Positions 19,153 through 35,580 of a stretch of DNA of 64,000 bases are shown in pieces. The stretch spans positions 248,001-312,000 of the forward strand of contig NZ_JPWF01000005.1 of NCBI RefSeq assembly GCF_003326675.1, given 5' to 3'. The position numbers were made by a program, and so were the translations under genes. Under the pieces are notes generated by a model, which ran no database searches, had not been told where the DNA came from, and worked only from the letters and a program-made list of their open reading frames with translations. Numbering within the stretch: position 1 is the first letter of the stretch; each line of letters starts with the position of its first letter. Source of the DNA: Thalassospira profundimaris (GTDB lineage: Bacteria; Pseudomonadota; Alphaproteobacteria; Rhodospirillales; Thalassospiraceae).

Positions 19153-19238
19153 GCCCCTGTGGCGGAATTGGTAGACGCGGCAGACTCAAAATCTGTTTCA
19201 CTTAGTGAGTGGGAGTTCGATTCTCCCCGGGGGCACCA
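19153..19238 (+). tRNA. tRNA-Leu (CAA)
   Basis: A class II tRNA gene of 86 bases including an encoded CCA. The acceptor GCCCCTG pairs with CGGGGGC, the discriminator is A, and the anticodon loop CTCAAAA gives anticodon CAA, which reads UUG. A long variable arm and the GTTCGATTC T-loop are present. The 3' end is the integration site of the mobile element that follows; the element restores the same 3' sequence, so the tRNA stays intact. Confidence 0.95.
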
Positions 19239-19247
19239 TCGCTTTTC
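19211..19247 (+). repeat. attL, 37-bp direct repeat
   Basis: The T-arm, acceptor 3' strand, CCA and nine following bases of tRNA-Leu. Identical to 35544-35580. Confidence 0.92.
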
Positions 19248-19286: not shown

Positions 19287-19307
19287 TGTGTACCTATTGT
19301 GTGTACC
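19287..19307 (+). repeat. TGTGTACC repeats, possible recombinase arm sites
   Basis: TGTGTACC occurs at 19287-19294 and again at 19300-19307, a 13-base period, about 40 bases inside attL. A third copy with longer identity (GTGTGTACCAA) lies at 35446-35456, near attR. The placement at both ends is what recombinase arm-binding sites look like, but this is inference. Confidence 0.35.
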
Positions 19308-19322
19308 AATCAGGTGTTCCTT

Positions 19323-20999
19323 ATGTCATTGGCTACAAACGTAGTTAGGATTGCTGGCAGATATTATTTTCGTTGCCGCATCCCAGAAGACATCAAACCT
19401 TACCTAAAACGTCAGGCTTACAAGATTGCACTGCGAACAGCAGAACCTTCCAGTGCAAGGCGAAAGGCTGCTATCGTATCTCGACACATGTTGATGTTTT
19501 TTGATGAGATACGAATGTCTGACAAATCAGAGAAAGAACAACTCGAAGCCAAATTGGAAGAAATGCTTGATGAGAAGCATAAAGGGCTTGCTAAAATTCT
19601 GGCTCAGAAAATTATCATAGATGAATATTCAGCAGAAATGCAGCTACGAATAGTTGAGATGAAAAATCTCGATTTGTATCTTCAGAACGTCCTTCAGGAT
19701 GCCGAGCTAAGAAGGCAAACATATTACAGCAATCAGAAATCCAGAAAATTAGAAAAAGTTGGTGATGACCTGAAGTATGAAAAGAGAAAACTGAAAGAAA
19801 TTGAAGACGGAAAACTGGATATAAAAAAGAGAAATCCAGAGGCAAATCAGAAGCTGATGTACTTTGTTGATAAGGTTGAAAAAAACAAGAAAGGCAAAAT
19901 TCTAGACCATAGCCTGCCTCAATATCGAAGGGCGGTAAGCCTCTTTACAGGTCTGGTTGGGGACAAACCAGTTCATGAATATAAACTGTCAGACTTTGAA
20001 GAGTATCAGTCCCTCTTTCTGAGGGTGCCGCTAGACTACCAGAAAATTGCGTCAGGTAATCCGCTGAAAGCAATTGAAGTTAATGACAATTTACCTGATG
20101 GGCAAAAATACGACACTTATAAATGGAAAACATTTAAAGGTAAGCATGCTAGCTCTATCAGGGTTGTTTTTGATTATATTAAAAAACATAAAATATTAGA
20201 ATATAACCCAATGAGTGACTTTAAGTTGGAGGAGCCAGTATATGATTATACAGCTACCAGAAGAAAGCCTAAAAGGTCATTCAAGAATGAAGAGCTTGTT
20301 AAAATATTTAACGTTCCTCTTTTTCATTCCTGTCTGAATTCGGTTAACTGGATGACACCAGGGAATTATCCAATCAGGGACTTTAAGTTTTGGGGTATCT
20401 TGATTGGATTGTTTACGGGAGCTCGTTCAAGTGAAATCGGTCAACTCCTTATCATGGATGTTGTCAATTATAATAATATTCCTCATTTTCATATCGTTGA
20501 CCAATATACCTATGAAGATGTTTTGGATTATGATTTAAATATCAGCGAAGAGGAATTGGATGAAATAAACAAGAGAACCAAGAACAAAAAGTCAGTTCGG
20601 TTGGTTCCGGTTCATAACGAATTAATTAAAATGGGTTTTCTCGATTATTTAGAGAAACGGAAGTCAGAGTGTCAAAGTCATTCGGAGCAGCTATTTCCTG
20701 ATTGGTACGCAGATAAGTATGGCAGGCATTCTACTTTGATGGCTGAAAGGTTTTCATATCTTCTTGATAAATCTGGAATAAAAACACAAGCTATTTCATT
20801 CCATAGTTTCCGTCATACTTTCAAGGATGCAATGAGGCGTGCAGATTTGCCCTATGGTGTTCAGAGAAAATTCATGGGACATTCTTTGAACGATGTTAAT
20901 GAGGAATATGGAATTGACAAACTTCAGAAAAAGCATTCTGAGGAAATAAATAATATCAGTTATGATACGCTCGATTTTTCCCACCTTTATGTAAAGTAA
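19323..20999 (+). CDS. site-specific tyrosine recombinase (integrase)
   Basis: The likely integrase of the element, because it lies directly inside attL. It has about 558 residues. The long N-terminal half contains a DUF6538-like start (N-V-V-R-I-A-G-R-Y-Y-F-R-C-R-I-P) and a lysine-rich coiled-coil region. The catalytic C-terminal half shows G-A-R-S-S-E-I-G-Q-L (first Arg), H-S-F-R-H-T-F (His-x-x-Arg) and G-H-S-L-N-D-V-N-E-E-Y-G (nucleophile Tyr). The start at 19323 is chosen because the protein family begins there; a GTG lies at 19299. No promoter of its own is evident, so read-through from the tRNA promoter is possible. Confidence 0.92.
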   Translation: MSLATNVVRIAGRYYFRCRIPEDIKPYLKRQAYKIALRTAEPSSARRKAAIVSRHMLMFFDEIRMSDKSEKEQLEAKLEEMLDEKHKGLAKILAQKIIIDEYSAEMQLRIVEMKNLDLYLQNVLQDAELRRQTYYSNQKSRKLEKVGDDLKYEKRKLKEIEDGKLDIKKRNPEANQKLMYFVDKVEKNKKGKILDHSLPQYRRAVSLFTGLVGDKPVHEYKLSDFEEYQSLFLRVPLDYQKIASGNPLKAIEVNDNLPDGQKYDTYKWKTFKGKHASSIRVVFDYIKKHKILEYNPMSDFKLEEPVYDYTATRRKPKRSFKNEELVKIFNVPLFHSCLNSVNWMTPGNYPIRDFKFWGILIGLFTGARSSEIGQLLIMDVVNYNNIPHFHIVDQYTYEDVLDYDLNISEEELDEINKRTKNKKSVRLVPVHNELIKMGFLDYLEKRKSECQSHSEQLFPDWYADKYGRHSTLMAERFSYLLDKSGIKTQAISFHSFRHTFKDAMRRADLPYGVQRKFMGHSLNDVNEEYGIDKLQKKHSEEINNISYDTLDFSHLYVK

Positions 21000-21148: not shown

Positions 21149-22183
21149 ATGGCAAGTATCAGAAAGAGGAAAGGTAAATTCACAATCACAATTAATGTTC
21201 CGCGAGATTATCCATATAAGGTATATGCTAAAACTTTCTCAAAAACATTTAATAGTAAAAAAGATGCCCTGTTTTGGGCAAGGCATACACATGATTCAAT
21301 GAAGTTGGGGGCTTGGAGGGATCCAAGGCTTCTTGATGAAGATAAAGAACAGGATACCCTGTTTATGGATGTTCTGAACCGATACCTCAAAGAGGTCAGT
21401 GTCCATAAGAAGGGGCATGATAAGGAAATCGGTCGTATTAAGAAATATATGGCCCATCCGATAGGGCAGAAATTTCTATATAAAATCAAATCTTCTGACA
21501 TTGCTGATATTCGTGATGAATTGCTCAAGCAGGGCAAAGCAGCATCAACCATCCGAAATGAAATTTTCATTCTGTCCAATGTGTTTCAGGTAGCCAAGTT
21601 TGATTGGGGTTATTCCAGTCTGGAAAATCCTGTCGAGATATTACGACAAAGAAAGAACAGCTTGCCCAAACCGGCTCCAGGCCGTGAGAGAAGGCTTGAA
21701 GGTGATGAAGAGCATCGTCTCATGGAAGCCATTGAGAAAGGACATGATAGCCAAGAAATGAAAGCTATCATCATAGTTGCTCTGGAAACTGGAATGAGAC
21801 TTGGAGAAATCCTTGGAGCGAAACGAGCATGGCTTAAAGGTGATGTATTATCCCTACCGGATACCAAAAACGGAACCAGTAGAGATGTCATACTCTCACA
21901 GAAGGCATTAGATGCTATCCAAAACCTTCATTTAAGGCTCTCTGGTGACATCTTTGGCCTGAATAAGGACAAAGTGGAGTACAGATGGAAAATGGCACTC
22001 AGAGAGGCCAAAATCAGCAATCTGAGAATTCATGACCTGAGACACGAAGCTCTAAGCCGTATGGTTGCCAAAGGAGCAAACCTCAAAATCATTATGAGGC
22101 AATCAGGTCACAAATCTGTTGATATGCTTATGAGGTATACCCACCCAACAAATGACGATGTTAGGAAGATGTTAGTGGGGTGA
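21149..22183 (+). CDS. second tyrosine recombinase
   Basis: A 344-residue phage-type integrase with all active-site boxes visible: T-G-M-R-L-G-E-I-L (Arg), H-D-L-R-H-E-A-L-S-R (His-x-x-Arg) and G-H-K-S-V-D-M-L-M-R-Y-T-H (Tyr). A SAM-like core-binding domain precedes them and an AP2-like N-terminal arm domain comes first. A clear AAAAGGA ribosome site precedes the ATG. It is much shorter than, and only distantly similar to, the first integrase. It may resolve or excise the element, or may be the remnant of a second element. No separate attachment repeats were found for it. Confidence 0.9.
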   Translation: MASIRKRKGKFTITINVPRDYPYKVYAKTFSKTFNSKKDALFWARHTHDSMKLGAWRDPRLLDEDKEQDTLFMDVLNRYLKEVSVHKKGHDKEIGRIKKYMAHPIGQKFLYKIKSSDIADIRDELLKQGKAASTIRNEIFILSNVFQVAKFDWGYSSLENPVEILRQRKNSLPKPAPGRERRLEGDEEHRLMEAIEKGHDSQEMKAIIIVALETGMRLGEILGAKRAWLKGDVLSLPDTKNGTSRDVILSQKALDAIQNLHLRLSGDIFGLNKDKVEYRWKMALREAKISNLRIHDLRHEALSRMVAKGANLKIIMRQSGHKSVDMLMRYTHPTNDDVRKMLVG

Positions 22184-22883: not shown

Positions 22884-23297
22884 TTAAGCTTTAAGGGATT
22901 TCTTATGAGCCTCAAAGTTCGGATGTTCAGGATTCAGGTACTCAGGGTCGTTCTTGATTTCCTCAACAGACACACCCTTTTCCTCTGCTACACGTAGCAC
23001 CCAAGCAATAACACGACCACGACCAGTCCAGGTTTCATCGTGGTTATCTGGATTGCGATATTTGGGGGTTATTGACTGTTTGGCTTTGGGGCTGGATACC
23101 GAAGTCGTGCCAGAGAACTTGAAAATCTCAGGATAAAGTTCACGAATTGAGAAACCGGCGTCATGGAGTTTTTGGTCAAATTCTCCACGAAGGTCTTTAA
23201 TCGCTTGTTCTTTGCGGTTTTCAACTTCGTTCTCAGCTTGTGCCATTAAATCTTTAAGTTCCTGGTAGCTGAGTTTTGAAATATCAACTTTAGCCAT
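22884..23297 (-). CDS. H-NS-family nucleoid protein
   Basis: A 137-residue H-NS-like xenogeneic silencer that binds AT-rich DNA. The N-terminal half is a helical oligomerisation region (L-S-Y-Q-E-L-K-D-L-M-A-Q-A-E-N-E-V-E). The C-terminal half holds the DNA-binding signature Y-R-N-P-D-N-H-D-E-T-W-T-G-R-G-R followed by W-V. Here the minor-groove hook reads T-G-R-G-R. The ATG at 23297 has a GGAG ribosome site; an upstream TTG at 23309 is less likely. On a mobile element it may silence the AT-rich cargo or help it escape host silencing. Confidence 0.88.
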   Translation of the reverse strand: MAKVDISKLSYQELKDLMAQAENEVENRKEQAIKDLRGEFDQKLHDAGFSIRELYPEIFKFSGTTSVSSPKAKQSITPKYRNPDNHDETWTGRGRVIAWVLRVAEEKGVSVEEIKNDPEYLNPEHPNFEAHKKSLKA

Positions 23298-23346
23298 AAT
23301 TTTCTCCAAATATAATTAATATAAACCTGTTTTAGATTATCTTTTC

Positions 23347-24102
23347 TCACAATTCAATGCTGGATTTCTCATTAGGTTTTGCTGCTGCTGGATATTTAAT
23401 CCAGAGCGTTCTCTGTGAGTAAAACAGACTGAATACCCAAGGCACGGTTAATGCTAGGCTTCCCAGGAAAAATAATTGTGAGATTATAATGCTGCTATTG
23501 GAATTCTGCTCATCAGCGAGTGCAAAGCTATTCCAAAAAGCTAATTTCAGGGAGCTCTGCTGCTCTGGGATTATTAAGTGCAGAAAAATCAAGATTAAGC
23601 AGGAAAATGATAAATATGATGCCTTCTGCATGTTGGCATGTTCGTTTTCGTGCACTTCCTTTTCCTTCTCAAGAACCTGGAAAGCTATGCTGTCTTGAGT
23701 TTTCTGAGCATAATCCAGAAGCTCGTCTTCGTTGACATAGGAATACTTTGACGGGCGGTCATGAAGGATGAGCGGTATTTTAAAAATCATGAAAATTGAA
23801 ATGGCAAACCAATCCACTATCACTTTTGTCACGCTGACAAAACACGACATAAAAATCGAGTATCCGATTATAAATAAAATTATATAGCCAATATTTAGGG
23901 ATGTCCCAAAATCATCCAGTCGCAGAGAGGCCAAGTTTCCTTTGCCGGTTATTGCCAAAGTCAGGTCGCTAAAAAGAGCCAAGCTGGAGAGCGCCAGGCA
24001 GAAGGAAAATTTTGTTGATTGTTCTGTAAGGCCGATAAAGCCTTCGTAAGTTTTTTGTATCAGTGACATTTGCTCTGCCGTTGCACTTGAACTCATACGC
24101 AT
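23347..24102 (-). CDS. four-helix membrane protein, unknown function
   Basis: A protein of about 251 residues with four hydrophobic segments in two pairs: roughly residues 32-52 and 72-98, then 165-180 and 208-228. A cytoplasmic-looking charged helical stretch lies between the pairs (Q-V-L-E-K-E-K-E-V-H-E-N-E-H). I do not recognise the family. The start is uncertain (24102 or 24096), and no ribosome site is visible at either. It lies 50 bases upstream of the H-NS-like gene on the same strand. Confidence 0.6.
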   Translation of the reverse strand: MRMSSSATAEQMSLIQKTYEGFIGLTEQSTKFSFCLALSSLALFSDLTLAITGKGNLASLRLDDFGTSLNIGYIILFIIGYSIFMSCFVSVTKVIVDWFAISIFMIFKIPLILHDRPSKYSYVNEDELLDYAQKTQDSIAFQVLEKEKEVHENEHANMQKASYLSFSCLILIFLHLIIPEQQSSLKLAFWNSFALADEQNSNSSIIISQLFFLGSLALTVPWVFSLFYSQRTLWIKYPAAAKPNEKSSIEL

Positions 24103-24212
24103 CAATCAAATAATTGATATTAATAGTAAATTCAGGAATGCATTGCTGTCAAACTTCTTTGGATAGAATGGTTCAAGCTGAGAAATTGGGATAACTTGAA
24201 CCTGTCGACGGG

Positions 24213-24506: not shown

Positions 24507-25799
24507 ATGGTTGCGTTATTAAAAACAGAAAATGTGTTGCAAATAGAGGACTTTAAGTATCCAGAAGGTGGTATGTTTGCAACCCTGCAAAAAACACAAA
24601 AGGGTATGTTTCAGAAATTTTACCATATGAAACAGATGCATTTTATATATGAGAACAAGCAGAATTTGGATGATTTCTATATCACTCAAAGTGTATTTGA
24701 CGGGAAAAGCAGGAAGAAGATAAATCTAAAGTATTTCAATCACGCTTGGGTGGATATTGATTATTATAATGTTCCAGTGCTTTCGGGGTTATCCAAAGAC
24801 CAAGTGGTTGGGCAGATTATCGACTTTATCCGTGATGAAGCTATTCCTTTTCCTACGAGCATTATCGATTCCGGGAAGGGGATATATTTAAAATGGGCAT
24901 TTTCTAGCTATATTCAGAAACAGGCTGGCAGAAAGCTGGAGGCCCTCAATAAGGCATTGATTAAAAAATTTTCACATTTCGGCGCTGACCCAGTGGCATT
25001 CGACGTGTCCAGGGTTCTTCGTGTCGTTGGAAGTATCAATACAAAGACCGGTGCGGCAGTCAGGATTATTCATCAAACTTCCGAATTCCACGATTTTGAA
25101 ATGTTTTGTGATGAGGTTTTTGAGCCATATGAGGCTTCTTCGGAAGCGAAGCGTTGCAAGGTCGTTTCCTTCAGGAGTGAAAATGCCAAAAGACGAGTTA
25201 TTTCTGCCGGGAATTTCACACGACAAGACTTCGCGTGGAAGGTTCTGTGCGATATTGAAAGCTTGATTAAAGCCCGTTTTGGAGGAGCTACGGTTCCCGA
25301 GAGATACAGAGACCTCTATGGTTTCATCGGGGCCTGTCAGATATCTACAGCCCTTGCTGACGACAAGGCGGCTGACGTTAAGCAAGAAATACTCACTTGG
25401 GCTAAACAGTGGCTTGCTTGCAGTTATGTTGATGATGAGTTTCAACACTATCTGTCCAGTCTTCTTGACCGAGTGTCTCGTCATCGAAGGGGCGAAAAAG
25501 TCGAATTCAGGGGGAAGCTAATTACTCCGGTTTACACCTACAGGAAGGATACTCTGATAGATAAACTTAAGGTCGAGAGCTCTGAAATGAGTGGGCTTAA
25601 TTTAAATGTTCTGATTGATACCAGAACAAAATACGAAAGAAAAAATCAGAAAAGAAGGAAAACAAATAATATTGAACTTATAAGGGCGGCGATTGGCAGA
25701 ATTGTTGCAAATGGTGGAGACGCTACTGTGGATGCTATTGCGGCGGAAGCGGGCGTATCAAAAAGCACCGTTATTAGAAATGTCGATAATTTATTATAA
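24507..25799 (+). CDS. archaeo-eukaryotic-primase-type replication protein
   Basis: A 430-residue replication initiator or primase of the plasmid/element AEP kind. The catalytic metal motif is W-V-D-I-D (Asp83, Asp85). It is followed by I-D-S-G-K-G-I-Y-L-K-W (about 120-130) and D-P-V-A-F-D-V-S-R-V-L-R-V-V-G-S-I-N-T-K (161-180), matching RepB'-like primases. The C-terminus has a helix-turn-helix (A-I-A-A-E-A-G-V-S-K-S-T-V-I-R-N-V-D). A strong AAAAAGGAG ribosome site precedes the start. Next to it lies a 570-bp non-coding stretch that could hold the origin. It suggests that the element replicates at least briefly when excised. Confidence 0.8.
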   Translation: MVALLKTENVLQIEDFKYPEGGMFATLQKTQKGMFQKFYHMKQMHFIYENKQNLDDFYITQSVFDGKSRKKINLKYFNHAWVDIDYYNVPVLSGLSKDQVVGQIIDFIRDEAIPFPTSIIDSGKGIYLKWAFSSYIQKQAGRKLEALNKALIKKFSHFGADPVAFDVSRVLRVVGSINTKTGAAVRIIHQTSEFHDFEMFCDEVFEPYEASSEAKRCKVVSFRSENAKRRVISAGNFTRQDFAWKVLCDIESLIKARFGGATVPERYRDLYGFIGACQISTALADDKAADVKQEILTWAKQWLACSYVDDEFQHYLSSLLDRVSRHRRGEKVEFRGKLITPVYTYRKDTLIDKLKVESSEMSGLNLNVLIDTRTKYERKNQKRRKTNNIELIRAAIGRIVANGGDATVDAIAAEAGVSKSTVIRNVDNLL

Positions 25800-26370: not shown

Positions 26371-29040
26371 ATGAATATTGCTGAAATTGAAATGGCTCTG
26401 GCTACCATCGCAGAACAGGAATTTGATAAGGCAGGGTTCCCATTTCAGTTCATCGAATGTTTTAAGGTCCCAAAAGCAACTGTCACGAAGCTCAAAGGAA
26501 CCCTGAATAAGGCTTCGGTGCAGGGGGAGCTCCTGTGGCCCAAGAAGCTCTACTACAAGCCCTGTAAAGAAGGTGATGTAGAGCAAGCACTCGATGGCAT
26601 GATGGATGAAGGTCTGACCAAGACCCATAAACCACAATACCTATTGGTGACAGATGGAGTAAAATTCTCTGCCTATGACCGGAGCAGAGAAATTTATCAA
26701 CATGGTGATTTTTCAGGGCTGAATGAGAGTTTCGACTTCTTCTTGTCGCTTGCCGGTATTGAGCGTTACGAAGCTGTTGAAGAAGCTCTGGCGGACATCA
26801 GGGCCGCTGGCCGCCTGGCAAAGTTTTATGACGCTGTACTAGCCGATAATCCTGATTGGAACGATGAAGGTCACGTTCACACGATAAACCTGTTTCTGAC
26901 CCGGATTCTGTTTTGCATGTTTGCAGAAGATACCGGGATATTTGAGCAGGATTTATTCTCCAAATCGTTGAATGAATATACTGATATTAATGGTGGAGAC
27001 GTAGGCAGTTTTCTTGACCAGATTTTCGCGGTCATGGATACGCCTGATAAAGAAAGAGCCAATCTTCCGGGCTTTATACGTGCTTTCCCCTACGTAAACG
27101 GAGGATTGTTCAAAGACCGCATTGAAACACCAAGGTTTACACGGTTGTCACGCCGTCTGCTGATTGAGGCAGCACGCCTAAACTGGCGGGAAATTAATCC
27201 AGATATATTTGGTTCCATGATTCAGGCGGTTGTTGAGCCTGGAATGCGTGGTGACTTGGGTTTGCACTACACCTCTGTCCCCAATATTATGAAGGTGCTT
27301 CAGCCCTTGTTTTTGCTGGATTTGGAAAAGCAATTCGCAGACAGCCAGGACAGTGTAGGCAAGCTGAATAAGTTGCATCAAAGGCTGGCAAAAATACGGG
27401 TATTTGACCCTGCCTGTGGTTCTGGAAACTTTCTTATCATTGCCTATCGAGAGCTGCGTAAGCTTGAAATGCGAATTTACAAGCGTCTCAGAGAGCTAAC
27501 TGGCGAGCTTGGTTGGAAATGGTCTGAGGTTACGCTCTCGAACTTCTATGGAATTGAATACGCCGATTTTGCCGCTGAAACTGCAAAGCTATCGCTGTGG
27601 ATTGCGGAATACCAAGTCAACAGGCAGTTCGCTGAAGTTTTTGGGGATGCACCACCTGCATTACCTCTAAAAGACGGTGGTAATATTCATCACAGAAATG
27701 CGTTAACGACTGACTGGGAGGATATCTGTCCTCCTGCCGAAAATGACGTTGAAACGTACATAGTAGGTAATCCTCCATATCTAGGGAGGGCGCAACAAAC
27801 GAAAGAACACAAAAAAGATATATCTTTTGTATTTTCTGATATTTCAAAAAAATACAAGAAACTGGATTATGTTGCTTGCTGGCTGATTAAAGCCGCTAAA
27901 TATACTGGAGAAAATAAGAATATATCTTTTGCGTTTGTGGCAACTAACTCTGTTTGTCAGGGGGAGCAAGTCCCCTTGCTTTGGCCGCATGTTTTGGGAG
28001 ATACACGCGAAATCTATTTTGCGCATCAATCTTTTAAATGGAAAAATCTTGCTTCAGGAAATGCAGGCGTCACATGCGTTGTAGTTGGTGTGAGAGGGAA
28101 GAAAGGCGGTCCTAAGACAATGTATGTGAACGATGTTGCTTACAGAGTGAGTAACATTAATGGGTATCTAATTGATTACTCAGATATATATATTGAACCA
28201 ATTAGTAATGCTAAAACAAAAAAAGAAGTTATGAAGTTCGGAAATATGCCAGCCGATGGGGGGAATCTCCTTTTATCGACAGAAGAGAAGAATGAAATTT
28301 TAAATTCATTTCCTGAGGCAGATTTCCTGTTTAGAAGAATAATGGGTTCAAAAGAGTTTATTAAAAAAAGGGACAGGTGGTGTCTGTGGATTGACGACAA
28401 AAATCTCAACGCCGCTTTGAAAATTCCTCCTATTCAAGAGAGGATAATAAGAACCAAAGAAATGAGATTGAATAGCGTGGATGCAGGGACAAAATCTTTG
28501 TCTGAAGCTCCCCATCAATTTCGAGAGATGAATATCGCAAGTGAACATTCCATTATAGTCCCTCGCGTTACATCAGAATCTAGGCCTTATGTTCAAGTAG
28601 GATTGCTTGATGGAAAAACCATCATAAGTGACTCTGCTTTTGCCCTTTATGACGCGCCGCTTTATCTCTTTGCTATCATATCTTCTAAGTTGCATGTCGT
28701 TTGGATTAAGGCAGTATGTGGGCAGCTCGAAACACGTATTCGATATTCAAACACACTAGGATACAACACGTTCCCAGTTCCTAAGCTGTATCAAAAAGAC
28801 ATAGAGTCGCTTGAAGAATTGGCTTGGAGGGTTATTGAAGCCAGAGAGCAGCATCCTGGCAAAACAATGGCAGACTTGTATGACCCTAAGAAGATGCCCC
28901 TCAACCTTCTGAAAGTTCATCAGGAGCTCGATGACGCATTAGAGACCTTGTATATCGGTAGGCCCTTCAAGAATGATACAGAACGCCTTGAGCACCTTTT
29001 CAAGATGTACGCAAAAATGACCAGGAAAAAGGCTGGATAG
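26371..29040 (+). CDS. MmeI-like class I DNA methyltransferase (type IIL/IIG-like)
   Basis: An 889-residue SAM-dependent DNA methyltransferase with the layout of the MmeI-type fused restriction-modification enzymes. SAM motif I is F-D-P-A-C-G-S-G-N-F (345-354), the adenine-specific catalytic motif IV is G-N-P-P-Y (466-470), and the last third looks like a target-recognition region ending in a helical spacer. The N-terminal domain, which in MmeI holds the D...ExK nuclease site, here reads G-E-L-L-W-P-K-K-L-Y-Y-K-P-C-K (52-66) without the ExK triad. Cleavage may therefore be lost and supplied by the downstream genes. The stop TAG abuts the next ATG. Confidence 0.85.
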   Translation: MNIAEIEMALATIAEQEFDKAGFPFQFIECFKVPKATVTKLKGTLNKASVQGELLWPKKLYYKPCKEGDVEQALDGMMDEGLTKTHKPQYLLVTDGVKFSAYDRSREIYQHGDFSGLNESFDFFLSLAGIERYEAVEEALADIRAAGRLAKFYDAVLADNPDWNDEGHVHTINLFLTRILFCMFAEDTGIFEQDLFSKSLNEYTDINGGDVGSFLDQIFAVMDTPDKERANLPGFIRAFPYVNGGLFKDRIETPRFTRLSRRLLIEAARLNWREINPDIFGSMIQAVVEPGMRGDLGLHYTSVPNIMKVLQPLFLLDLEKQFADSQDSVGKLNKLHQRLAKIRVFDPACGSGNFLIIAYRELRKLEMRIYKRLRELTGELGWKWSEVTLSNFYGIEYADFAAETAKLSLWIAEYQVNRQFAEVFGDAPPALPLKDGGNIHHRNALTTDWEDICPPAENDVETYIVGNPPYLGRAQQTKEHKKDISFVFSDISKKYKKLDYVACWLIKAAKYTGENKNISFAFVATNSVCQGEQVPLLWPHVLGDTREIYFAHQSFKWKNLASGNAGVTCVVVGVRGKKGGPKTMYVNDVAYRVSNINGYLIDYSDIYIEPISNAKTKKEVMKFGNMPADGGNLLLSTEEKNEILNSFPEADFLFRRIMGSKEFIKKRDRWCLWIDDKNLNAALKIPPIQERIIRTKEMRLNSVDAGTKSLSEAPHQFREMNIASEHSIIVPRVTSESRPYVQVGLLDGKTIISDSAFALYDAPLYLFAIISSKLHVVWIKAVCGQLETRIRYSNTLGYNTFPVPKLYQKDIESLEELAWRVIEAREQHPGKTMADLYDPKKMPLNLLKVHQELDDALETLYIGRPFKNDTERLEHLFKMYAKMTRKKAG

Positions 29041-31059
29041 ATGCAGGATTTTGTCAGAGTAAATTATGCCCAGTCTGGAGAAAGCCAGACTTCTAATGAG
29101 ATGGGCATGCGGGCAATGCAGGCCAGAGTCTTTCAAAACAGGCATTCCCAGTATCTTCTTGTGAAAGCCCCACCTGCATCAGGAAAATCCCGTGCGTTGA
29201 TGTTTATTGGTCTCGATAAGCTTGAAAATCAGGGCATTCGAAAAGTTATTGTTGCTGTTCCCGAGCGTTCCATTGGTTCTTCTTTCAAGAATACCAACCT
29301 GACTGAGCATGGGTTTTTTAGGGACTGGCAAGTTGAAGATGAATGGAACCTTTGCAAGGCAGGCGTTGCAAACGGCAAAGTTCAGTCATTTCTGAGTTTT
29401 ATGGACTCGGATGATGAAATTCTGGTGTGCACGCATTCGACGCTGCGTTTCGCCTTTGACGAAATCATAGCAACAAAAGGTATCGGTGCTTTTGATGACT
29501 GCTTGCTGGCAATTGATGAGTTTCATCATGTGTCAGCAGATGCGACCAGTAAGCTGGGTGAACTGGTAAGATTGCTTATTCAGGCAGATAATGCTCATCT
29601 GGTTGCAATGACAGGTTCTTATTTCAGGGGCGATGCTACGCCTGTTTTAAGGCCAGAGGACGAAGAAAAATTCAATCGGGTGTCCTACACCTATTATGAG
29701 CAGTTGAATGGCTACACGCACCTTAAAACGCTTGGAATAGGCTATCATTTTTATCGAGGCCGATATATCGACGCGATTAATGAAATTCTGGACCCAGCCA
29801 AGAAAACGATTGTGCATATTCCTCATGTAGGTGCGGCTGCGGCTTTGGGTAACAAATACGATGAAACAGACCGTATCATAGACCATTTAGGAGACATTCT
29901 GGGCCAACAAGACCCTGTGACGGGATTTTATCGCGTCCAAACCAAAAGTGGCGCTGTTATCAAAGTTGCTGATTTGGTTACTGAGGATGGGCGAGAGAAG
30001 GTTATTGAAGGCCTTCGGACAATAGAAAAGCGTGAAGACCTTGACGTTATTATTGCCTTGGGTATGGCAAAGGAAGGTTTTGACTGGATTTGGTGCGAAC
30101 ATGCTCTGACCATTGGCTATAAAGGGTCCTTGACTGAAGTAATTCAGATTATCGGGCGAACGACCCGCGATGCTCCTGGCAAAGAACATGCACAATTTAC
30201 CAATTTGATAGCCGAGCCTGATGCGACCCAGGACAGGGTGACAGATGCTGTTAACAACATGCTGAAGGCGATAGCAGCATCCTTGTTGATGGAGCAGGTG
30301 CTTGCGCCAAATTTCAAGTTCAAGACCCATAAAGGCGATGATGAAATTGATGGTTCAAGGCCCGATGTTGATGTTTCGACAACAGGTGACGGACCGGAAA
30401 TTGCGATTAAAGGCTTTAAGGAGCCAAGCAGTGACAGGGTAAAGCAAATCATTGAAAGTGATATTGCCGACCTTACGGCAGCAATTTTCCAAAACGAAGA
30501 CGTTCTTCGGGCTGCGATGAATCCCGATGAAATTGCCCCGGAAGTTGTCAATCAGGTGTTCATTCCAAAGGTGATTGAGCAAAAATACAAAGATTTGACG
30601 GAGGAAGAGATTGAAGAAATCCGTCAACATGTCGTTGCCAATGCCGTTTTCACGAATACCAATGATGAAATTGATGATGAGGAAGCCAAGACAAAGAAAA
30701 ACCTTGGTTTTGTGCGGATAGCAGAGAAATTTATCAATCTTGATGACCTCGATATTGATTTGATTGATAGCATCAATCCGTTCCAATTGGCCTATGAGGT
30801 CATGTCCAAATCTGTAGACGCTGCAGTTCTAAGTCGTATCCATCAGACTATTACTGCAAAGAAAATTGCAATGTCTAAGGAGGAAGCAGAAGTCCTCTAT
30901 CCACGTATCAAAAAGTTTCACGCAGAGCATGGCCGTGAACCGGATTTGGCTTCGCAAAACCCAATGGAAAAGCGGATGGCGGAGGCCTTGGCCTGGATTA
31001 GGGAAGCCAAGCGGAAGAAGAAGGCTGCTGAAATGGCCGCAGGTTTGAACAATGCCTAA
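29041..31059 (+). CDS. DEAD/DEAH-type SF2 helicase of the defence operon
   Basis: A 672-residue superfamily 2 helicase/translocase. Walker A is A-P-P-A-S-G-K-S (43-50), Walker B is L-L-A-I-D-E-F-H-H (155-163, a DEFH variant), motif III is M-T-G-S-Y (190-194) and motif VI is Q-I-I-G-R-T-T-R (369-376). The C-terminal 270 residues are helical and highly charged. They end in a block (about 620-665) containing F-H-A-E-H-G-R-E-P and E-K-R-M-A-E-A-L, which recurs in the next gene. It starts directly after the methyltransferase stop and overlaps the GIY-YIG gene by 8 bases. It is inferred to be the ATP motor of a restriction-like complex. Confidence 0.88.
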   Translation: MQDFVRVNYAQSGESQTSNEMGMRAMQARVFQNRHSQYLLVKAPPASGKSRALMFIGLDKLENQGIRKVIVAVPERSIGSSFKNTNLTEHGFFRDWQVEDEWNLCKAGVANGKVQSFLSFMDSDDEILVCTHSTLRFAFDEIIATKGIGAFDDCLLAIDEFHHVSADATSKLGELVRLLIQADNAHLVAMTGSYFRGDATPVLRPEDEEKFNRVSYTYYEQLNGYTHLKTLGIGYHFYRGRYIDAINEILDPAKKTIVHIPHVGAAAALGNKYDETDRIIDHLGDILGQQDPVTGFYRVQTKSGAVIKVADLVTEDGREKVIEGLRTIEKREDLDVIIALGMAKEGFDWIWCEHALTIGYKGSLTEVIQIIGRTTRDAPGKEHAQFTNLIAEPDATQDRVTDAVNNMLKAIAASLLMEQVLAPNFKFKTHKGDDEIDGSRPDVDVSTTGDGPEIAIKGFKEPSSDRVKQIIESDIADLTAAIFQNEDVLRAAMNPDEIAPEVVNQVFIPKVIEQKYKDLTEEEIEEIRQHVVANAVFTNTNDEIDDEEAKTKKNLGFVRIAEKFINLDDLDIDLIDSINPFQLAYEVMSKSVDAAVLSRIHQTITAKKIAMSKEEAEVLYPRIKKFHAEHGREPDLASQNPMEKRMAEALAWIREAKRKKKAAEMAAGLNNA

Positions 31060-32284
31060 GATGTCTCTTGATGACATATTTGACGATGAGCTTGTTGGTG
31101 AAGTCGAGGTCAAGGTTAAAGAAGTTGACCCCGAAGCAACGCGGATTCTGTCAAGTTTCGAAGAGATAAACCGGTTTATTGACCGGTATGGCCATGTTCC
31201 TGGTGCAGGTGCAGAGTTAAAGCCCTCTGTATCCGAGAGAAATCTGCAGTTGCGCTTAAAAGGGCTTCTGAAAGACAGAAACGCACTTGAGATACTTGCA
31301 TCTCATGACCGGCATAATCTGTTGAAGGATGTTGAGAAAAAAAATGCTGAAATTCAGTCGGTAAGCTCGCCCGACGAAGATGAATTTCCAGCAATGAGTC
31401 TTGACGAAATTCTTGATTCTGATGACGAGCTTTTATCTACCGACTCAGACGACATTTTTAATATAAAAAATGTTCCGACCAGTGCGCAGAAAAAAGTATC
31501 CAAGGCTGATTGGAAATCGGAGCGTATAAAATGCGAGGACTTCGACAAATTCGAACCGCTGTTTGATGAGTGTATGAAAGACCTTAAATCAGGTCGCAGA
31601 AAGGCCATTGAGTTTCAAAAAGAGCAAGAAATTCAAGCGGGCGAATTCTTCATTCTCAATGGGGTTACTGTCTTTGTCGCCGAAGTCGGTGAGACCCAAA
31701 TCCGAAACGGGAAAAAAAACGCGCGTTTGCGTGTGATTTTTGACAATGGGATGGAGGGAAACAACCTTCTCCGGTCACTTGCTACCGAGCTTTACAAAGA
31801 CCCGAATGGCAGGCGTATATCGTCACCCGTTAGTGGACCACTCTTTGATGATGTGGAGGACACTGAAAAAGGTGTCCTGACTGGTGTTGTATATGTCGTA
31901 AGGAGCTTGTCAAATGACCCGTCTATCAAGGCATTGGACGGGAATTTGTTCAAGATTGGTGTTACCAAGGGGACCCTCGAGGACAGGATTAGAAATGCGG
32001 TTGAAGACCCAACATTTTTAATGGCTCCAGTACATCCTTTGCGCAGTTTTGCGTTGATGGATGTTGACCCGGTAAAGGTTGAAAATCTGCTACATCGCTT
32101 TTTCAGCGAAGCAAGGCTTGATATCGAAATTCAGGACAGGTTTGGCAGGTTTGTGAAGCCAAGGGAATGGTTCCTTTTGCCATTGCCCGTAGTGGAAAAA
32201 GCAATCCGGTTGCTATTCGCTGGGACCATAGTTGACTATGAATATGACCCTGGAAATGGGGAAATTGTGTTTCGTAAAACTTGA
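31052..32284 (+). CDS. GIY-YIG (T5orf172-like) nuclease of the defence operon
   Basis: A 410-residue protein with a C-terminal GIY-YIG nuclease fold. The first strand G-V-V-Y-V-V (278-283), L-F-K-I-G-V-T (299-305), Arg312 and the metal-binding Glu344 in V-E-N-L-L-H-R-F-F are in the right order and spacing. Residues 30-90 resemble the last domain of the preceding helicase. A short acidic motif M-S-L-D-D/E-I occurs twice, at residues 4-9 and 115-120. It overlaps the helicase gene by 8 bases, so the three genes form one coupled operon. It is the best candidate for the DNA-cutting subunit. Confidence 0.82.
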   Translation: MPKMSLDDIFDDELVGEVEVKVKEVDPEATRILSSFEEINRFIDRYGHVPGAGAELKPSVSERNLQLRLKGLLKDRNALEILASHDRHNLLKDVEKKNAEIQSVSSPDEDEFPAMSLDEILDSDDELLSTDSDDIFNIKNVPTSAQKKVSKADWKSERIKCEDFDKFEPLFDECMKDLKSGRRKAIEFQKEQEIQAGEFFILNGVTVFVAEVGETQIRNGKKNARLRVIFDNGMEGNNLLRSLATELYKDPNGRRISSPVSGPLFDDVEDTEKGVLTGVVYVVRSLSNDPSIKALDGNLFKIGVTKGTLEDRIRNAVEDPTFLMAPVHPLRSFALMDVDPVKVENLLHRFFSEARLDIEIQDRFGRFVKPREWFLLPLPVVEKAIRLLFAGTIVDYEYDPGNGEIVFRKT

Positions 32285-32289
32285 GTTGT

Positions 32290-32508
32290 TCACTCTTGTT
32301 TTTGCTTCGCAAAGAACTCGACAACTTCGACATTTAAGGCCCCGGCAAGGGCAGCGAGCGTGGTTATTGTAGGGCTGCGTTTGCCGTTTTCAATCTGGCT
32401 TAAAAAGCTCGGGGCAAGCCCTGCCCGATGCGAAAGAGCCTCCTGACTCATACCGCTTTTAAGCCTTATCCGACGTAAGTTTGAGCCAACCGTCTCTCGT
32501 ATGTCCAT
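32290..32508 (-). CDS. XRE-family helix-turn-helix regulator
   Basis: A 72-residue Cro/C1-type regulator that is almost only the DNA-binding domain: L-R-R-I-R-L-K-S-G-M-S-Q-E-A-L-S-H-R-A-G-L-A followed by S-F-L-S-Q-I-E-N-G-K-R-S-P-T. Its size and position resemble restriction-modification controller (C) proteins. It converges on the GIY-YIG gene and is divergent from the membrane-protein gene. No ribosome site precedes the ATG, so the mRNA may be leaderless. A perfect 14-bp palindrome 36 bases upstream is its probable operator. Confidence 0.88.
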   Translation of the reverse strand: MDIRETVGSNLRRIRLKSGMSQEALSHRAGLAPSFLSQIENGKRSPTITTLAALAGALNVEVVEFFAKQKQE

Positions 32509-32581: not shown

Positions 32582-33565
32582 ATGAGTAACAATCTCAGAG
32601 GAGTACGAAGGTTGGAAAATGCGAGTGAATTTATCCCAGAGAAACGTAGTTGGTTGAAAAACCGATTGGTACTGCAGGTGATATTTCTTGTGGTGGTTGG
32701 CCCTCTGATGATTTTTCTTCTGGGGGGCCTATACGCTGAGATGCGCTGGTCACAGAGGTCTTTCTATGAGGCACCTTTTACACCTTGGTTGATTACCGCT
32801 GCGCTGGTTTTCTGGATGCCGTATCGACTGACCAGAAAGCCTTTGGAAAACAAGGTAGCCAATGACCCGCTTGCTAAAGTCGTAATCAGGGCAACCAAGC
32901 TCCACTTCGAAAAAGATATGAAAGGAAGTGGTGTTATTTTATGGGCGATGGCTGTGCTATTGGGCGGGCTTCTGCCGAGTTTGATACTTATCCCGATTAC
33001 ATCTCCGAATACCGAGATGGTGTGGTTTTTTGCCCTTCCAATGGTTTTGGGTTGGCGTTTCTTCATTCCCCAATGGTTGGAAAACCGCGAGGTCAGAAAT
33101 GCTCTTACGGTGACAGCAAAGCTCAGAGAATTTCTTGGTGACGATATCGGCTACTATGTTGCCGGTGATAGAGGCGGCATAGCAATTTCTAGAGATAATC
33201 AGACGTTTGCATTTGTACGCATGGACAAAAAGAAAATAGCCAAGTCTGGAACCGTCGCCTGGAATGACATTAGAAAATGGGGAGAGCGAGAGAGTGTCGC
33301 AAATACCATCCGGGCCATCGGCAGAACAAGCACAACCGAAGCGATTGATGTTATGAGCTATAACGGTCAGGAGCATAACAAAGCCGCGCAGAACACTGGT
33401 TTGTATCTTGAATACGACCTTTCTGACCTTGAAAATGACCGCATCGTAATACCCCTGAAAAGTTATCAGGCCGCAACTTGGAGTAAGATAATGAGCCGCT
33501 TGAAAAATGGCGAACTTGCAAGTGTTGTGGAGCCAGAGTTTGTTCCTGCCGCTCGGGTATCGTAA
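32582..33565 (+). CDS. membrane protein, unknown function
   Basis: A 327-residue protein with two pairs of hydrophobic helices in its first half (about residues 29-50, 66-82, 119-138 and 145-162). The soluble C-terminal domain of roughly 150 residues contains G-D-R-G-G-I-A-I-S-R-D-N-Q-T-F-A-F-V and a short R-K-W-G-E-R-E-S motif. I do not recognise it with confidence. The divergent position opposite the XRE regulator, with a shared palindromic operator, suggests the two are co-regulated. It could be an accessory defence or transfer protein. A strong terminator follows. Confidence 0.6.
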   Translation: MSNNLRGVRRLENASEFIPEKRSWLKNRLVLQVIFLVVVGPLMIFLLGGLYAEMRWSQRSFYEAPFTPWLITAALVFWMPYRLTRKPLENKVANDPLAKVVIRATKLHFEKDMKGSGVILWAMAVLLGGLLPSLILIPITSPNTEMVWFFALPMVLGWRFFIPQWLENREVRNALTVTAKLREFLGDDIGYYVAGDRGGIAISRDNQTFAFVRMDKKKIAKSGTVAWNDIRKWGERESVANTIRAIGRTSTTEAIDVMSYNGQEHNKAAQNTGLYLEYDLSDLENDRIVIPLKSYQAATWSKIMSRLKNGELASVVEPEFVPAARVS

Positions 33566-33792: not shown

Positions 33793-34113
33793 ATGGTTGC
33801 AAGAAATAGGTTTTTAAAAATAAGGGTTAGTGAACAAGAAAAGAAATTATTCAAATCAGGGGCGAACACCTCTGGGATGAATTTATCAGTATGGGCCAGA
33901 CAGTCTTTGGCCTTGGCAGCACGCAAGAAAACAATTGAGAGCTACAGGGAACTCATCCAAGCAATTTACTCAGTACAGACAGAGTTAAATTGTGTTGGCA
34001 ACAACATCAATCAGCTTACCCGCTACGCACATAGTAAACATGAACAAGCTGACCTCGTATACATCAAATGCCTGCTTCAGGGGATGTCTGAAAAGATAAA
34101 CAGTCTGAGGTAA
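33793..34113 (+). CDS. mobC: MobC-like relaxosome accessory protein
   Basis: A 106-residue ribbon-helix-helix-type protein that would bind oriT and help the relaxase. The start F-L-K-I-R-V-S-E-Q-E-K-K-L-F-K matches the DNA-binding ribbon. The stretch E-L-N-C-V-G-N-N-I-N-Q-L-T-R-Y-A-H is the signature of the bacterial MobC family. A GGAGG ribosome site precedes the ATG. It ends 4 bases before the relaxase start codon, a typical mobCA pair. Confidence 0.85.
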   Translation: MVARNRFLKIRVSEQEKKLFKSGANTSGMNLSVWARQSLALAARKKTIESYRELIQAIYSVQTELNCVGNNINQLTRYAHSKHEQADLVYIKCLLQGMSEKINSLR

Positions 34114-34117
34114 CCTG

Positions 34118-35425
34118 ATGATTTTGAATACGACGAGAATCAGGACTTCAGGCGGTTTTCGAAACCTCAAAAACCATCTGCTTCATAAAGACTTGGAGAA
34201 TGAACGTATTGAGCTTCTTGTTGGGTGGGAGGGAGATTTTGAAAAGTTCCATCGAGAAGCAGAGTTCGATGGTTGCAAGTTCTCTATGAGGCACATTTCT
34301 ATCAATGCTGGGCGTCCGATGGACGATAAAAACGAGCATAGGGCCGTTGAACTTATCCTGAGTGAGTTTAATGCAAATGAAAGGCCTTACATCCTGGTTC
34401 GTCATACAAAGAAGCTGTCTGATGGAAGTCCTAACAATCATCTTCACCTGATTGTGCCAGAGAGATTTTTGGGAAGAACTTTGGATTCAAAATTTTTCAA
34501 AGTGAGAAACGAAAAGATATCCAGGCTACTGGAACTGGAATTCGGACATCAGTTGACGGTTGGCAGGCATAACCGCTCTGTTGCGCAATTTCTATCATCT
34601 CAGGGGGATTGTCCAGAAACCCTTCTTCACATTGCAGAAACACCTCGCCCAGTGGCCTCATTTGGGGCCGCAGAACATCAAGAACTTAAGAGGAAGGGCT
34701 TGCAACTTCCTGCCCTCAAACAAGAGGTAAAGCAGGCATTCAAGGATGCATCTGACATCAGTGTTTTCTCAGAGAAACTGGGTGAAATGAATCTTGTGCT
34801 CAGGCGGGGAGAGAAAGCCTTTGTCATTGAGCATGAAAACGGCACGTTTGTTGGTGCCTGTCACAGATTACTAAAAATAAGAAAAATGGAATTCGACAAC
34901 TTAATGGAGGAACACAATGGCTCAATTGCAAAACGTCACAGGCGCAATACAGAAGACGAAGAAGAATACAGACGACATTCTAAAAATCTTGGAGCAGGAA
35001 GATGGCGAGAGCCCACTCAATCTCATGATGGACCTGCTTGCCGAAATCGTCACAGGGCAAAGAATGATTTGTCAAAGGTTGGACTTAATCGAATCACAGA
35101 TAGAAGGCTTGAAAAGAGGAAGAAGGATATAGTTCGGCTTTTTACCTCATTGGGTGATAGGTCCCCTTTAGACGAGGAAACGTATCAAGCGGACTACGCC
35201 AGTTTTCAAGAAACATCATCTAGAGTTTTGGCAGCTTACCAGCGTTTTAAAGATAGCCAGGGAAAGGGGGAGGTGTATCGGCTTATCAGGAATGTTGAGA
35301 ATGCTATACAGGCTAGCGCGTTTCCTCTTGCTTCGTCGCAAGATAGTGCATCCCTTCAAGCGGAAACAACCGAGGATAAGGTTAGAACGATAAAGCCAGC
35401 CCCAAAGTTCTTGCCGCCATTTTGA
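34118..35425 (+). CDS. relaxase / mobilization nuclease
   Basis: A 435-residue relaxase that would nick oriT and pilot the strand during mobilization. The N-terminus reads S-G-G-F-R-N-L-K-N-H-L-L, a motif of a relaxase subfamily common in alphaproteobacterial elements. The metal-binding histidine pair is N-N-H-L-H-L-I-V-P-E-R (about 105-115). The first tyrosine is only at residue 90, so His20 or His24 rather than an N-terminal Tyr may be the nucleophile, as in MobM. Residues about 260-340 are highly charged and overlap a second gene in another frame. Mature helical C-terminal sequence follows. Confidence 0.82.
   Translation: MILNTTRIRTSGGFRNLKNHLLHKDLENERIELLVGWEGDFEKFHREAEFDGCKFSMRHISINAGRPMDDKNEHRAVELILSEFNANERPYILVRHTKKLSDGSPNNHLHLIVPERFLGRTLDSKFFKVRNEKISRLLELEFGHQLTVGRHNRSVAQFLSSQGDCPETLLHIAETPRPVASFGAAEHQELKRKGLQLPALKQEVKQAFKDASDISVFSEKLGEMNLVLRRGEKAFVIEHENGTFVGACHRLLKIRKMEFDNLMEEHNGSIAKRHRRNTEDEEEYRRHSKNLGAGRWREPTQSHDGPACRNRHRAKNDLSKVGLNRITDRRLEKRKKDIVRLFTSLGDRSPLDEETYQADYASFQETSSRVLAAYQRFKDSQGKGEVYRLIRNVENAIQASAFPLASSQDSASLQAETTEDKVRTIKPAPKFLPPF
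34917..35132 (+). CDS. small protein nested in the relaxase gene (MobB-like position)
   Basis: A 71-residue reading frame entirely inside the relaxase gene but in a different frame. A GGAGG ribosome site lies 7 bases before the ATG, which is stronger than most starts nearby. The product looks like a genuine helical protein (D-D-I-L-K-I-L-E ... L-N-L-M-M-D-L-L-A-E-I-V-T-G-Q ... L-D-L-I-E-S-Q-I-E-G-L-K). The relaxase frame over the same bases is an irregular charged linker. Genes overlapping relaxases are known from RSF1010 (mobB in mobA). The role as a relaxosome helper is inferred. Confidence 0.6.
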   Translation: MAQLQNVTGAIQKTKKNTDDILKILEQEDGESPLNLMMDLLAEIVTGQRMICQRLDLIESQIEGLKRGRRI

Positions 35426-35543: not shown

Positions 35544-35580
35544 GGGAGTTCGATTCTCCCCGGGGGCACCATCGCTTTTC
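35544..35580 (+). repeat. attR, 37-bp direct repeat
   Basis: Identical to 19211-19247. It marks the right end of the element; only a tRNA 3' fragment is present here. Confidence 0.92.

What the first reader, a model, noticed from the sequence alone, without database searches (positions are those of the whole stretch)
26371..32284. Coupled methyltransferase-helicase-GIY-YIG operon as a candidate uncharacterised defence system
Three genes overlap or abut on one strand: an 889-residue MmeI-like methyltransferase, a 672-residue SF2 helicase with a DEFH box, and a 410-residue GIY-YIG protein. A small XRE regulator lies opposite, all inside an integrative element. The set has the parts of a restriction system (modification, motor, nuclease) but does not match BREX (no PglZ or BrxL), DISARM (no DrmB) or type I or III RM (no HsdS/HsdR or Mod/Res). 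I know of no named system with exactly this trio, though I cannot search.
Basis: partly seen in the sequence, partly recalled or inferred. Interest (0 to 1): 0.82.

Follow-up and report, generated by a model that had tools for sequence, protein, structure and literature searches.

The report
Mobile DnmA–YeeB–YeeC restriction-type operon
Three bacterial genes on a mobile DNA element form an intact copy of a widespread, already described but poorly understood gene set (a DNA-marking enzyme, a DNA motor and a likely DNA cutter) that probably marks the cell's own DNA and destroys unmarked DNA, though the cutting itself is inferred here, not shown.

Summary
An MmeI-like methyltransferase (A), an SF2 motor (B) and a T5orf172/GIY-YIG protein (C) abut at 26371-32284, in a 16.3-kb element at tRNA-Leu, probably in Thalassospira.

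The trio is not undescribed: it is the DnmA(YeeA)-YeeB-YeeC cluster. PMC9973331 reports the same gene order in other bacteria, and PMC7261158 cites an earlier proposal of a "Type I-like RM system".

In the best 80 titled loci with B, A lies upstream in 69 of 69 testable cases and C downstream in 79 of 79. Of 127 methyltransferases with partners, 0 keep the MmeI nuclease triad; 9 of 9 near-full-length stand-alone homologues keep it. The cutter has therefore probably moved to C. The target-recognition half of A is divergent in 12 of 13 dereplicated pairs whose B is at least 90% identical. A variable slot lies between A and B (gap over 300 nt in 41 of 121 loci) but hardly between B and C (1 of 136).

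Most likely it is an ATP-dependent, Type I-like restriction-modification system. Restriction is unproven: B. subtilis tests were negative; Vibrio crassostreae deletions are reported positive.

Verdict: new member of a known kind, with new detail.

The parts
26371..29040 (+). A: DnmA/YeeA-like predicted m6A methyltransferase of the MmeI family (889 aa); carries the target-recognition domain; endonuclease triad degenerate (E53/K63/C65 where MmeI has D70/E80/K82)
   Evidence: Pfam; phmmer alignment to MmeI 5hr4 E 5.1e-173; motif comparison; DPACGSGNF at residue 346 and NPPY at 467
27660..28803 (+). block of A (about residues 430-811: motif IV and target-recognition domain) that does not match the sister element in Thalassospira sp. 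HJ
   Evidence: blastn of the two elements: 93.3% identity up to 27659 and 95.5% from 28804, no match between; protein identity 94% N-terminal, 43% in this half
29041..31059 (+). B: YeeB-like SF2 helicase/translocase (672 aa); no nuclease domain found by Pfam
   Evidence: Pfam; invariant G48-K49-S50, D159-E160-F161-H162, T191-G192-S193, Q369, G372-R373 and R376 among 50 selected proteins; AlphaFold model; Foldseek matches incl. Hel308, MrfA, EcoR124I HsdR
31052..32284 (+). C: YeeC-like protein (410 aa): N-terminal helical part, Tudor/KOW-like middle (weak evidence), C-terminal T5orf172/GIY-YIG domain with the conserved residues present
   Evidence: Pfam; invariant G278, Y281, K301, G303, R312, E344, H348, E372, W373 in 64 selected full-length proteins; model; Foldseek
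30796..31029 (+). C-terminal stretch of B (residues 586-663) whose profile matches the N-terminus of C
   Evidence: hhalign 95.5%, E 1.4e-8; the 15 other windows of B give 0.9% or less (first seen)
32290..32508 (-). XRE/Cro-type HTH protein, convergent with C; element gene, not a conserved partner
   Evidence: HTH_3 9.1e-18; tblastn in 140 loci
19211..19247 (.). left attachment repeat, overlapping the 3' end of tRNA-Leu(caa) 19153-19238
35544..35580 (.). right attachment repeat
19299..20999 (+). tyrosine integrase of the element (the GTG start is the program's choice)
   Evidence: Phage_integrase 2.3e-8, DUF6538
21149..22183 (+). second tyrosine integrase
   Evidence: Phage_integrase 5.1e-24
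33793..35425 (+). mobilisation genes: NikA/MobC-like protein and MobA-like relaxase (the relaxase match is below Pfam's cut-off)

Best explanation
It is an intact DnmA-YeeB-YeeC operon carried by an integrative mobilisable element, and it most likely works as a Type I-like, ATP-dependent restriction-modification system. A reads a short asymmetric site and methylates adenine on one strand, protecting the host. When A meets an unmethylated site on incoming DNA it loads B, a motor that moves along DNA, and C, a GIY-YIG nuclease, cuts. Shown here by sequence: intact methyltransferase, ATPase and GIY-YIG-type residues; loss of A's own nuclease triad; strict partnership of A, B and C; an exchangeable recognition half of A beside a nearly unchanged B. 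Inferred: that the three form one complex, that cutting needs ATP, that C is the cutter, and that two head-to-head unmethylated sites may be needed, which would solve the one-strand methylation problem as in Type III and ISP enzymes (recalled). Shown elsewhere for a homologue: DnmA of B. subtilis makes m6A at GACGAG (PMC7261158).
For: Order A-B-C in 69/69 (A) and 79/79 (C) testable loci out of 80. Triad D-E-K in 0 of 127 partnered A proteins and in 9 of 9 near-full-length stand-alone MmeI homologues; D70/E80/K82 are the MmeI catalytic residues (PMC4833311 passage). GIY-YIG-type residues invariant in 64 selected C proteins and helicase motifs invariant in 50 selected B proteins, all present in the window. 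Recognition half of A below 70% identical in 12 of 13 dereplicated pairs whose B is 90% or more identical. Profile match between the B C-terminus and C N-terminus. B resembles HsdR of EcoR124I among many other SF2 motors. Genes between A and B include toxin- and defence-type families. Vibrio crassostreae dnmA and yeeB deletions raised sensitivity to some phages, as told in PMC9973331.
Against: In B. [quoted passage not shown] Loss of dnmA did not change plasmid transformation or growth (PMC7261158). The DnmA motif is not avoided in phage genomes. No cutting by B or C was reported in the passages I read. No A-B or B-C fusion was found by a frame check in 140 loci, so a complex is not shown. The whole-chain Foldseek search of C had no match at E 0.001 or better, and none of its 50 rows shown is a GIY-YIG nuclease.
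Confidence: 0.66

Rival explanations
1. A relic: A is active as an orphan regulatory methyltransferase while B and C no longer restrict, as concluded for B. subtilis.
For: Negative phage and transformation tests in B. subtilis.
Against: The invariant residues of B and C are present in the window; all three genes are kept in order in all testable titled loci; the copy sits on a mobile element closely matching one in another species. PMC9973331 itself notes that B. subtilis YeeB and YeeC lack stretches present in Vibrio.
Confidence: 0.14
2. Defence without site-specific cutting by C: A marks self, B blocks phage replication or processes DNA as in BREX or DISARM, and C acts in another way, for example on ends or on RNA.
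For: B has weak resemblance to PbeA and Dnd restriction helicase models; C's middle domain weakly resembles Tudor/KOW folds; phages do not avoid the DnmA site.
Against: GIY-YIG-type residues of C are invariant in 64 selected proteins, and A has lost its nuclease triad where B and C are present, which fits C being the cutter.
Confidence: 0.13
3. The operon mainly maintains or controls its own element (addiction-like), with phage defence secondary.
For: It lies on a mobilisable element; relatives of B are in 263 plasmid records.
Against: Loci come from records of many phyla, a number of them on contigs of several hundred kilobases or more; deletion of dnmA in B. subtilis gave no growth defect, against post-segregational killing there.
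Confidence: 0.07

Closest known systems
DnmA(YeeA)-YeeB-YeeC cluster of Bacillus subtilis and homologues, incl. Vibrio crassostreae (PMC9973331, PMC7261158)
   Same: Same three families in the same order: MmeI-like methyltransferase without nuclease motif, SF2 helicase, T5orf172 protein.
   Different: The B. subtilis copy is reported inactive and short of C-terminal stretches in YeeB and YeeC relative to Vibrio. The window copy is on a tRNA-Leu element and has all invariant residues. Not aligned directly to B. subtilis here; a Bacillus locus seen is L048 (B. mediterraneensis).
MmeI / Type IIL restriction-modification enzymes
   Same: A aligns to MmeI over residues 53-884 (E 5.1e-173), with all five MmeI domains.
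   Different: MmeI cuts by its own D70/E80/K82. The window has E/K/C there and goes with partner genes.
Type I restriction-modification (HsdR-HsdM-HsdS)
   Same: Separate motor gene, exchangeable specificity (recalled for HsdS), cargo genes inside the operon (PMC12255303 and PMC12629846 passages).
   Different: No HsdS; recognition is in the same protein as methylation; motor and putative nuclease are two proteins; the nuclease is GIY-YIG-type rather than the PD-ExK of HsdR (recalled).
PADLOC REase_MTase_IIG (PDLC03598)
   Same: A matches at 1.9e-291.
   Different: The label implies a built-in nuclease, whose triad is absent in the sequence.

Membership tests
DnmA-YeeB-YeeC cluster | MmeI-family methyltransferase lacking the endonuclease motif | tested here: met
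DnmA-YeeB-YeeC cluster | SF2 helicase gene directly downstream | tested here: met
DnmA-YeeB-YeeC cluster | T5orf172 / GIY-YIG gene next downstream | tested here: met
DnmA-YeeB-YeeC cluster | conserved order across species | tested here: met
   80 titled loci selected by B: A 69/69, C 79/79 testable
DnmA-YeeB-YeeC cluster | direct sequence match to the B. subtilis proteins | not tested
   B. subtilis sequences were not fetched; its genome matches the MmeI_TRD family in the control set
Type IIL (MmeI) restriction enzyme | PD-ExK nuclease triad in the same chain | tested here: not met
Type I RM | HsdS specificity subunit and HsdR with nuclease plus motor | tested here: not met
   no such match of the three proteins in Pfam or in the PADLOC rows shown (25 of 36 rows for A)
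Type I-like mechanism | ATP-dependent translocation and cutting at a distance by one complex | not testable with these tools
   needs purified proteins
BREX | PglZ and BrxL (or BrxC) | tested here: not met
   no such match in the rows shown for 8 proteins of the element (25 of 36 rows shown for A; integrases, XRE and mobilisation proteins not scanned there)
DISARM | DrmB (DUF1998) | tested here: not met
   no DrmB row for the same 8 proteins; only partial DrmMI matches of A
Anti-phage defence system | protection in an infection assay | not testable with these tools
   reported for V. crassostreae homologues, absent in B. subtilis

The most novel reading that the evidence does not exclude
DnmA-YeeB-YeeC is not a relic but a major functional restriction class of its own. 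An MmeI methyltransferase lost its built-in nuclease and was rewired to a separate SF2 motor and GIY-YIG cutter. Its specificity is changed by swapping the back half of the methyltransferase, and its operon has a dedicated docking slot between methyltransferase and motor for interchangeable back-up effectors (SLFN_AlbA_2, RhuM, Fic, PD-ExK and others).
Probability: 0.5. Interest if true: 0.62.

Novelty: new member of a known kind. Interest (0 to 1): 0.4.

Why it matters
Yet the B. subtilis copy was judged inactive. The triad count (0 of 127 against 9 of 9) gives a simple sequence test that separates self-cutting MmeI enzymes from partner-dependent ones, and it suggests that some 'Type IIG' calls by PADLOC name the wrong cutter. 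The recognition-half swaps point to natural allele pairs, such as this element and its Thalassospira sp. HJ sister, for testing specificity with motor and nuclease held nearly constant. The cargo slot would extend the known habit of embedding second defences in Type I operons to this system.

Tried and rejected
XRE protein as a conserved regulator: rejected; beside C it was found only in the sister copy. Gene fusions as proof of a complex: none by a frame check in 140 loci. Solved relatives by sequence: only MmeI for A (E up to 0.001); for B one unrelated match at E 0.017; none for C up to E 1. Foldseek of C: the best rows were EF-P/eIF5A/Tudor-type folds at E 0.01 or worse, with no GIY-YIG nuclease among the 50 shown of 579; read only as a hint for the middle domain. 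Empty-site test: the right flank matched 20 of 29 same-genus genomes, the window's own included, the others mostly at 68-76% identity; not carried further. ORFs downstream of C were listed for 42 loci of 63 with room but not scanned.

Literature: 10 searches, listings only; then passages of PMC9973331, PMC7261158, PMC4833311, PMC12255303 and PMC12629846. Passages of PMC13230959, PMC12707154 and PMC13092281 showed nothing on the trio as a defence system for the words searched; PMC12707154 mentions DnmA once as an orphan methyltransferase. Piel et al. (V. crassostreae), Morgan et al. 2009 and Makarova et al. 2011 were not held and are known only through the citing papers.

Rows dropped or set apart. 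L032 is the same record as L015 and was left out of the pair analysis. L150, twin of L140, was left out of the 61-protein cargo alignment. The triad count took 105 of the 140 B-selected loci (B on the + strand of the locus, A match over 800 residues), the window and 21 of the 25 partnered loci; ORFs of 800 aa or less were left out there (partnered L192, L202, L205, L211; stand-alone L190, L220). Of 3 loci cut at contig ends, 2 keep D-E-K and 1 (L213) does not. L221 scored as lacking the triad in its first 260 residues; the pattern was found at residue 1004 of that long ORF. One strong family match (G212) was not fetched. Near-duplicate viral contigs are in the 127 (L140/L150, L133/L151). 'Partnered' means B found in the fetched stretch; in L184 and L194 C lay outside it. 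The C alignment A3 and B alignment A4 are selections (64 and 50 rows) of longer lists printed; a plasmid C whose end is lost (L024) is not in A3.
Full report
What is there. A carries all five MmeI domains and aligns to MmeI (PDB 5hr4) over residues 53-884 with E 5.1e-173. B is an SF2 helicase (ResIII above Pfam's cut-off, DEAD and Helicase_C just under it) with D159-E160-F161-H162. C ends in a T5orf172/MUG113 domain, placed in the GIY-YIG superfamily from recalled knowledge. A 72-aa XRE protein lies opposite at 32290-32508.

Surroundings. G+C falls from about 54% on the left to 38-46% between 20 and 36 kb. A tRNA-Leu(caa) at 19153-19238 marks the left end. Thirty-seven identical bases at 19211-19247 and 35544-35580 bound a 16.3-kb element with two tyrosine integrases, a NikA/MobC-like protein and a relaxase-like protein, the last below Pfam's cut-off. 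A closely similar element (93-95% in the matching blocks) lies in G003, which also has a tRNA-Leu(caa) near its left end but, by eye, different genes on the right. The G003 contig has the length (439494) of the record NZ_JYII01000006.1, Thalassospira sp. HJ. The tool lists G003 as the same genus as the window's genome, so the host is probably Thalassospira (inference).

It is already described. PMC9973331 (passages read) describes dnmA-yeeB-yeeC in B. subtilis, an MmeI-like methyltransferase followed by a helicase and a T5orf172 protein. It reports the same order around DnmA homologues of other species, finds no phage protection in B. subtilis against three phages, and tells that Vibrio crassostreae dnmA and yeeB deletions raise sensitivity to some phages and not others. 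PMC7261158 (passages) says that DnmA belongs to MmeI homologues that lack the endonuclease motif and are flanked by yeeB- and yeeC-like genes, cites the suggestion of a Type I-like RM system, and finds no effect on transformation. I did not align the window proteins to the B. subtilis ones; the assignment rests on architecture and order.

How strict is the partnership? A was found upstream in all 69 where the contig reaches, with 11 at contig edges; C was found downstream in all 79 where it reaches. In 43 viral-collection loci, A was found in 29 of 30 testable (L141 has only a 234-residue match) and C in 40 of 42 testable (not in L145 and L154, whose B matches are incomplete); 28 show both. 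Seven relatives of the window genome with C all have A and B; C was found in 8 of 100 genomes there, counting the window's own. By record titles the 80 include Pseudomonadota, Bacteroidota, Bacillota, Actinomycetota, Planctomycetes, Chlamydiae, Saccharibacteria and a Methanosarcinaceae archaeon. On plasmids B matches 263 of 72,556 records and C 225. These loci were chosen by B and are its best matches, so they measure how often B has partners, not how often A stands alone.

Where is the cutter? MmeI cuts with D70, E80 and K82 (PMC4833311 passage). In the window those positions are E53, K63 and C65. To ask whether this is general I searched for the MmeI recognition-domain family: 34 of 299 genomes drawn from the phylum and 42 of 337 drawn from the class, the two draws overlapping. 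I fetched 39 places of strong matches: 25 have B in the fetched stretch, 11 stand alone, 3 are cut at contig ends. The triad was read in 127 partnered proteins (the window, 105 of the 140 loci above, 21 of these 25): 0 keep D-E-K and 0 keep E-x-K; one has E at position 80 and none K at 82. Of the 11 stand-alone ones, 2 are fragments; of the other 9, 8 keep D-E-K at the aligned place and the ninth has the pattern at residue 1004 of a longer ORF. Of the 3 cut ones, 2 keep it and 1 does not. That A without the motif goes with yeeB- and yeeC-like genes was noted before for a set of homologues; the two-sided count is made here. C keeps G278, Y281, K301, G303, R312, E344, H348, E372 and W373 in the 64 proteins aligned, and B keeps its Walker A, DEFH, TGS and GR..R residues in the 50 aligned; the window has them all. 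The simplest reading is that cutting moved from A to C, with B as motor.

Target recognition is swapped. Between the window element and its sister, B is 96% and C 97% identical and the first 430 residues of A 94%, but residues 430-810 only 43%. In DNA, the match stops at 27659 and resumes at 28804. Among 102 systems (5,151 pairs), dereplicated to 100, 12 of 13 pairs with B at 90% or more have that half of A under 70%; the exception is 71%. C is 75-99% identical in those pairs. This resembles HsdS exchange in Type I systems (recalled) and suggests that B and C do not depend on one recognition sequence. Pairs share members and are not all independent.

A cargo slot. The A-B gap exceeds 300 nt in 26 of 71 titled-genome loci, 9 of 33 viral-collection loci and 6 of 17 others, whereas the B-C gap does so in 1 of 79, 0 of 40 and 0 of 17. 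Gaps were measured between ends of BLAST matches. The 41 gapped loci hold 70 ORFs of 60 aa or more, 66 of them on the operon strand; 39 of the 41 have at least one such ORF, L099 and L147 none. Of 61 operon-strand proteins of 89 aa or more (62 less one twin), 11 match HATPase_c_4, 10 SLFN_AlbA_2, 6 RhuM, 5 Fic, 2 PDDEXK_4, 2 DUF3800, and single ones YhcG, Abi_C, PIN, HigB-like and FRG (25 of 29 families shown). PADLOC labels 9 as PDC-S23 and 6 or 7, by model, as PDC-S05 (25 of 249 rows shown). Embedding of second defences is known for Type I systems (PMC12255303 and PMC12629846 passages), which also cite a preprint on embedded defences that is not held. My ten searches listed nothing that I recognised as describing such a slot in this cluster; that preprint might. 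The window copy itself has no cargo.

B and C may be linked. The last helices of B (586-663) and the N-terminus of C match by profile comparison (95.5%, E 1.4e-8 for this one comparison), while 15 other windows of B give 0.9% or less. The C model has mean pLDDT 84 but pTM 0.43, so its domains are placed loosely; the B model has pLDDT 78 and pTM 0.73. Foldseek puts B among SF2 motors, including EcoR124I HsdR, Hel308 and MrfA. For C it finds only weak EF-P/Tudor-like matches.

Mechanism and standing. The best explanation is a Type I-like, ATP-dependent restriction-modification system, at 0.66. Recognition, methylation chemistry, ATPase and GIY-YIG chemistry are inferred from conserved residues; complex formation, translocation and cutting are not shown. 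The strongest evidence against is the lack of any restriction phenotype in B. subtilis. The finding is a new, intact, mobile member of a known but poorly understood kind.

Noticed in passing
26371-29040: PADLOC-DB 2.0.0 calls A a Type IIG restriction enzyme (1.9e-291) although the nuclease triad is gone; the same model may mislabel other partner-dependent MmeI-like methyltransferases.
   Followed up: partly
22884-23309: H-NS-like protein (Histone_HNS 4.6e-8) on the element, possibly silencing foreign DNA.
   Followed up: no
24507-25799: Protein with a weak RepB-primase match (0.0017, below Pfam's cut-off) and a C-terminal HTH-like stretch, upstream of the trio; could be the element's replication gene.
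   Followed up: no
23347-24105 and 32582-33565: Two proteins of the element (252 and 327 aa, hydrophobic stretches by eye) with no Pfam, NCBIfam or PADLOC match at the limits used.
   Followed up: no
L025 12965-19983: On a Zymomonas mobilis plasmid the trio is followed by MotA/TolQ, OmpA, EH-signature and helicase genes, which looks like a Zorya system (annotation; the Zorya label is recalled).
   Followed up: no
L017, L020, L021 downstream of C: Genes after C look by eye like McrC-type (L017, L021) and SIR2 plus HerA-type (L020) defence genes; not scanned.
   Followed up: no
L023 7032-12141: Proteus terrae plasmid: the annotated methyltransferase gene is short and starts right beside IS26, and the GIY-YIG part is annotated as two ORFs, near resistance genes. 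Described only.
   Followed up: no
L024 10938-11906: In a Rhodococcus plasmid the end of C is lost, next to a transposase gene.
   Followed up: no
L221 9151-14763: A stand-alone MmeI-like enzyme lies in the later part of a 1,871-aa ORF, its nuclease triad at residue 1004; a possible fusion with an unknown N-terminal half.
   Followed up: no
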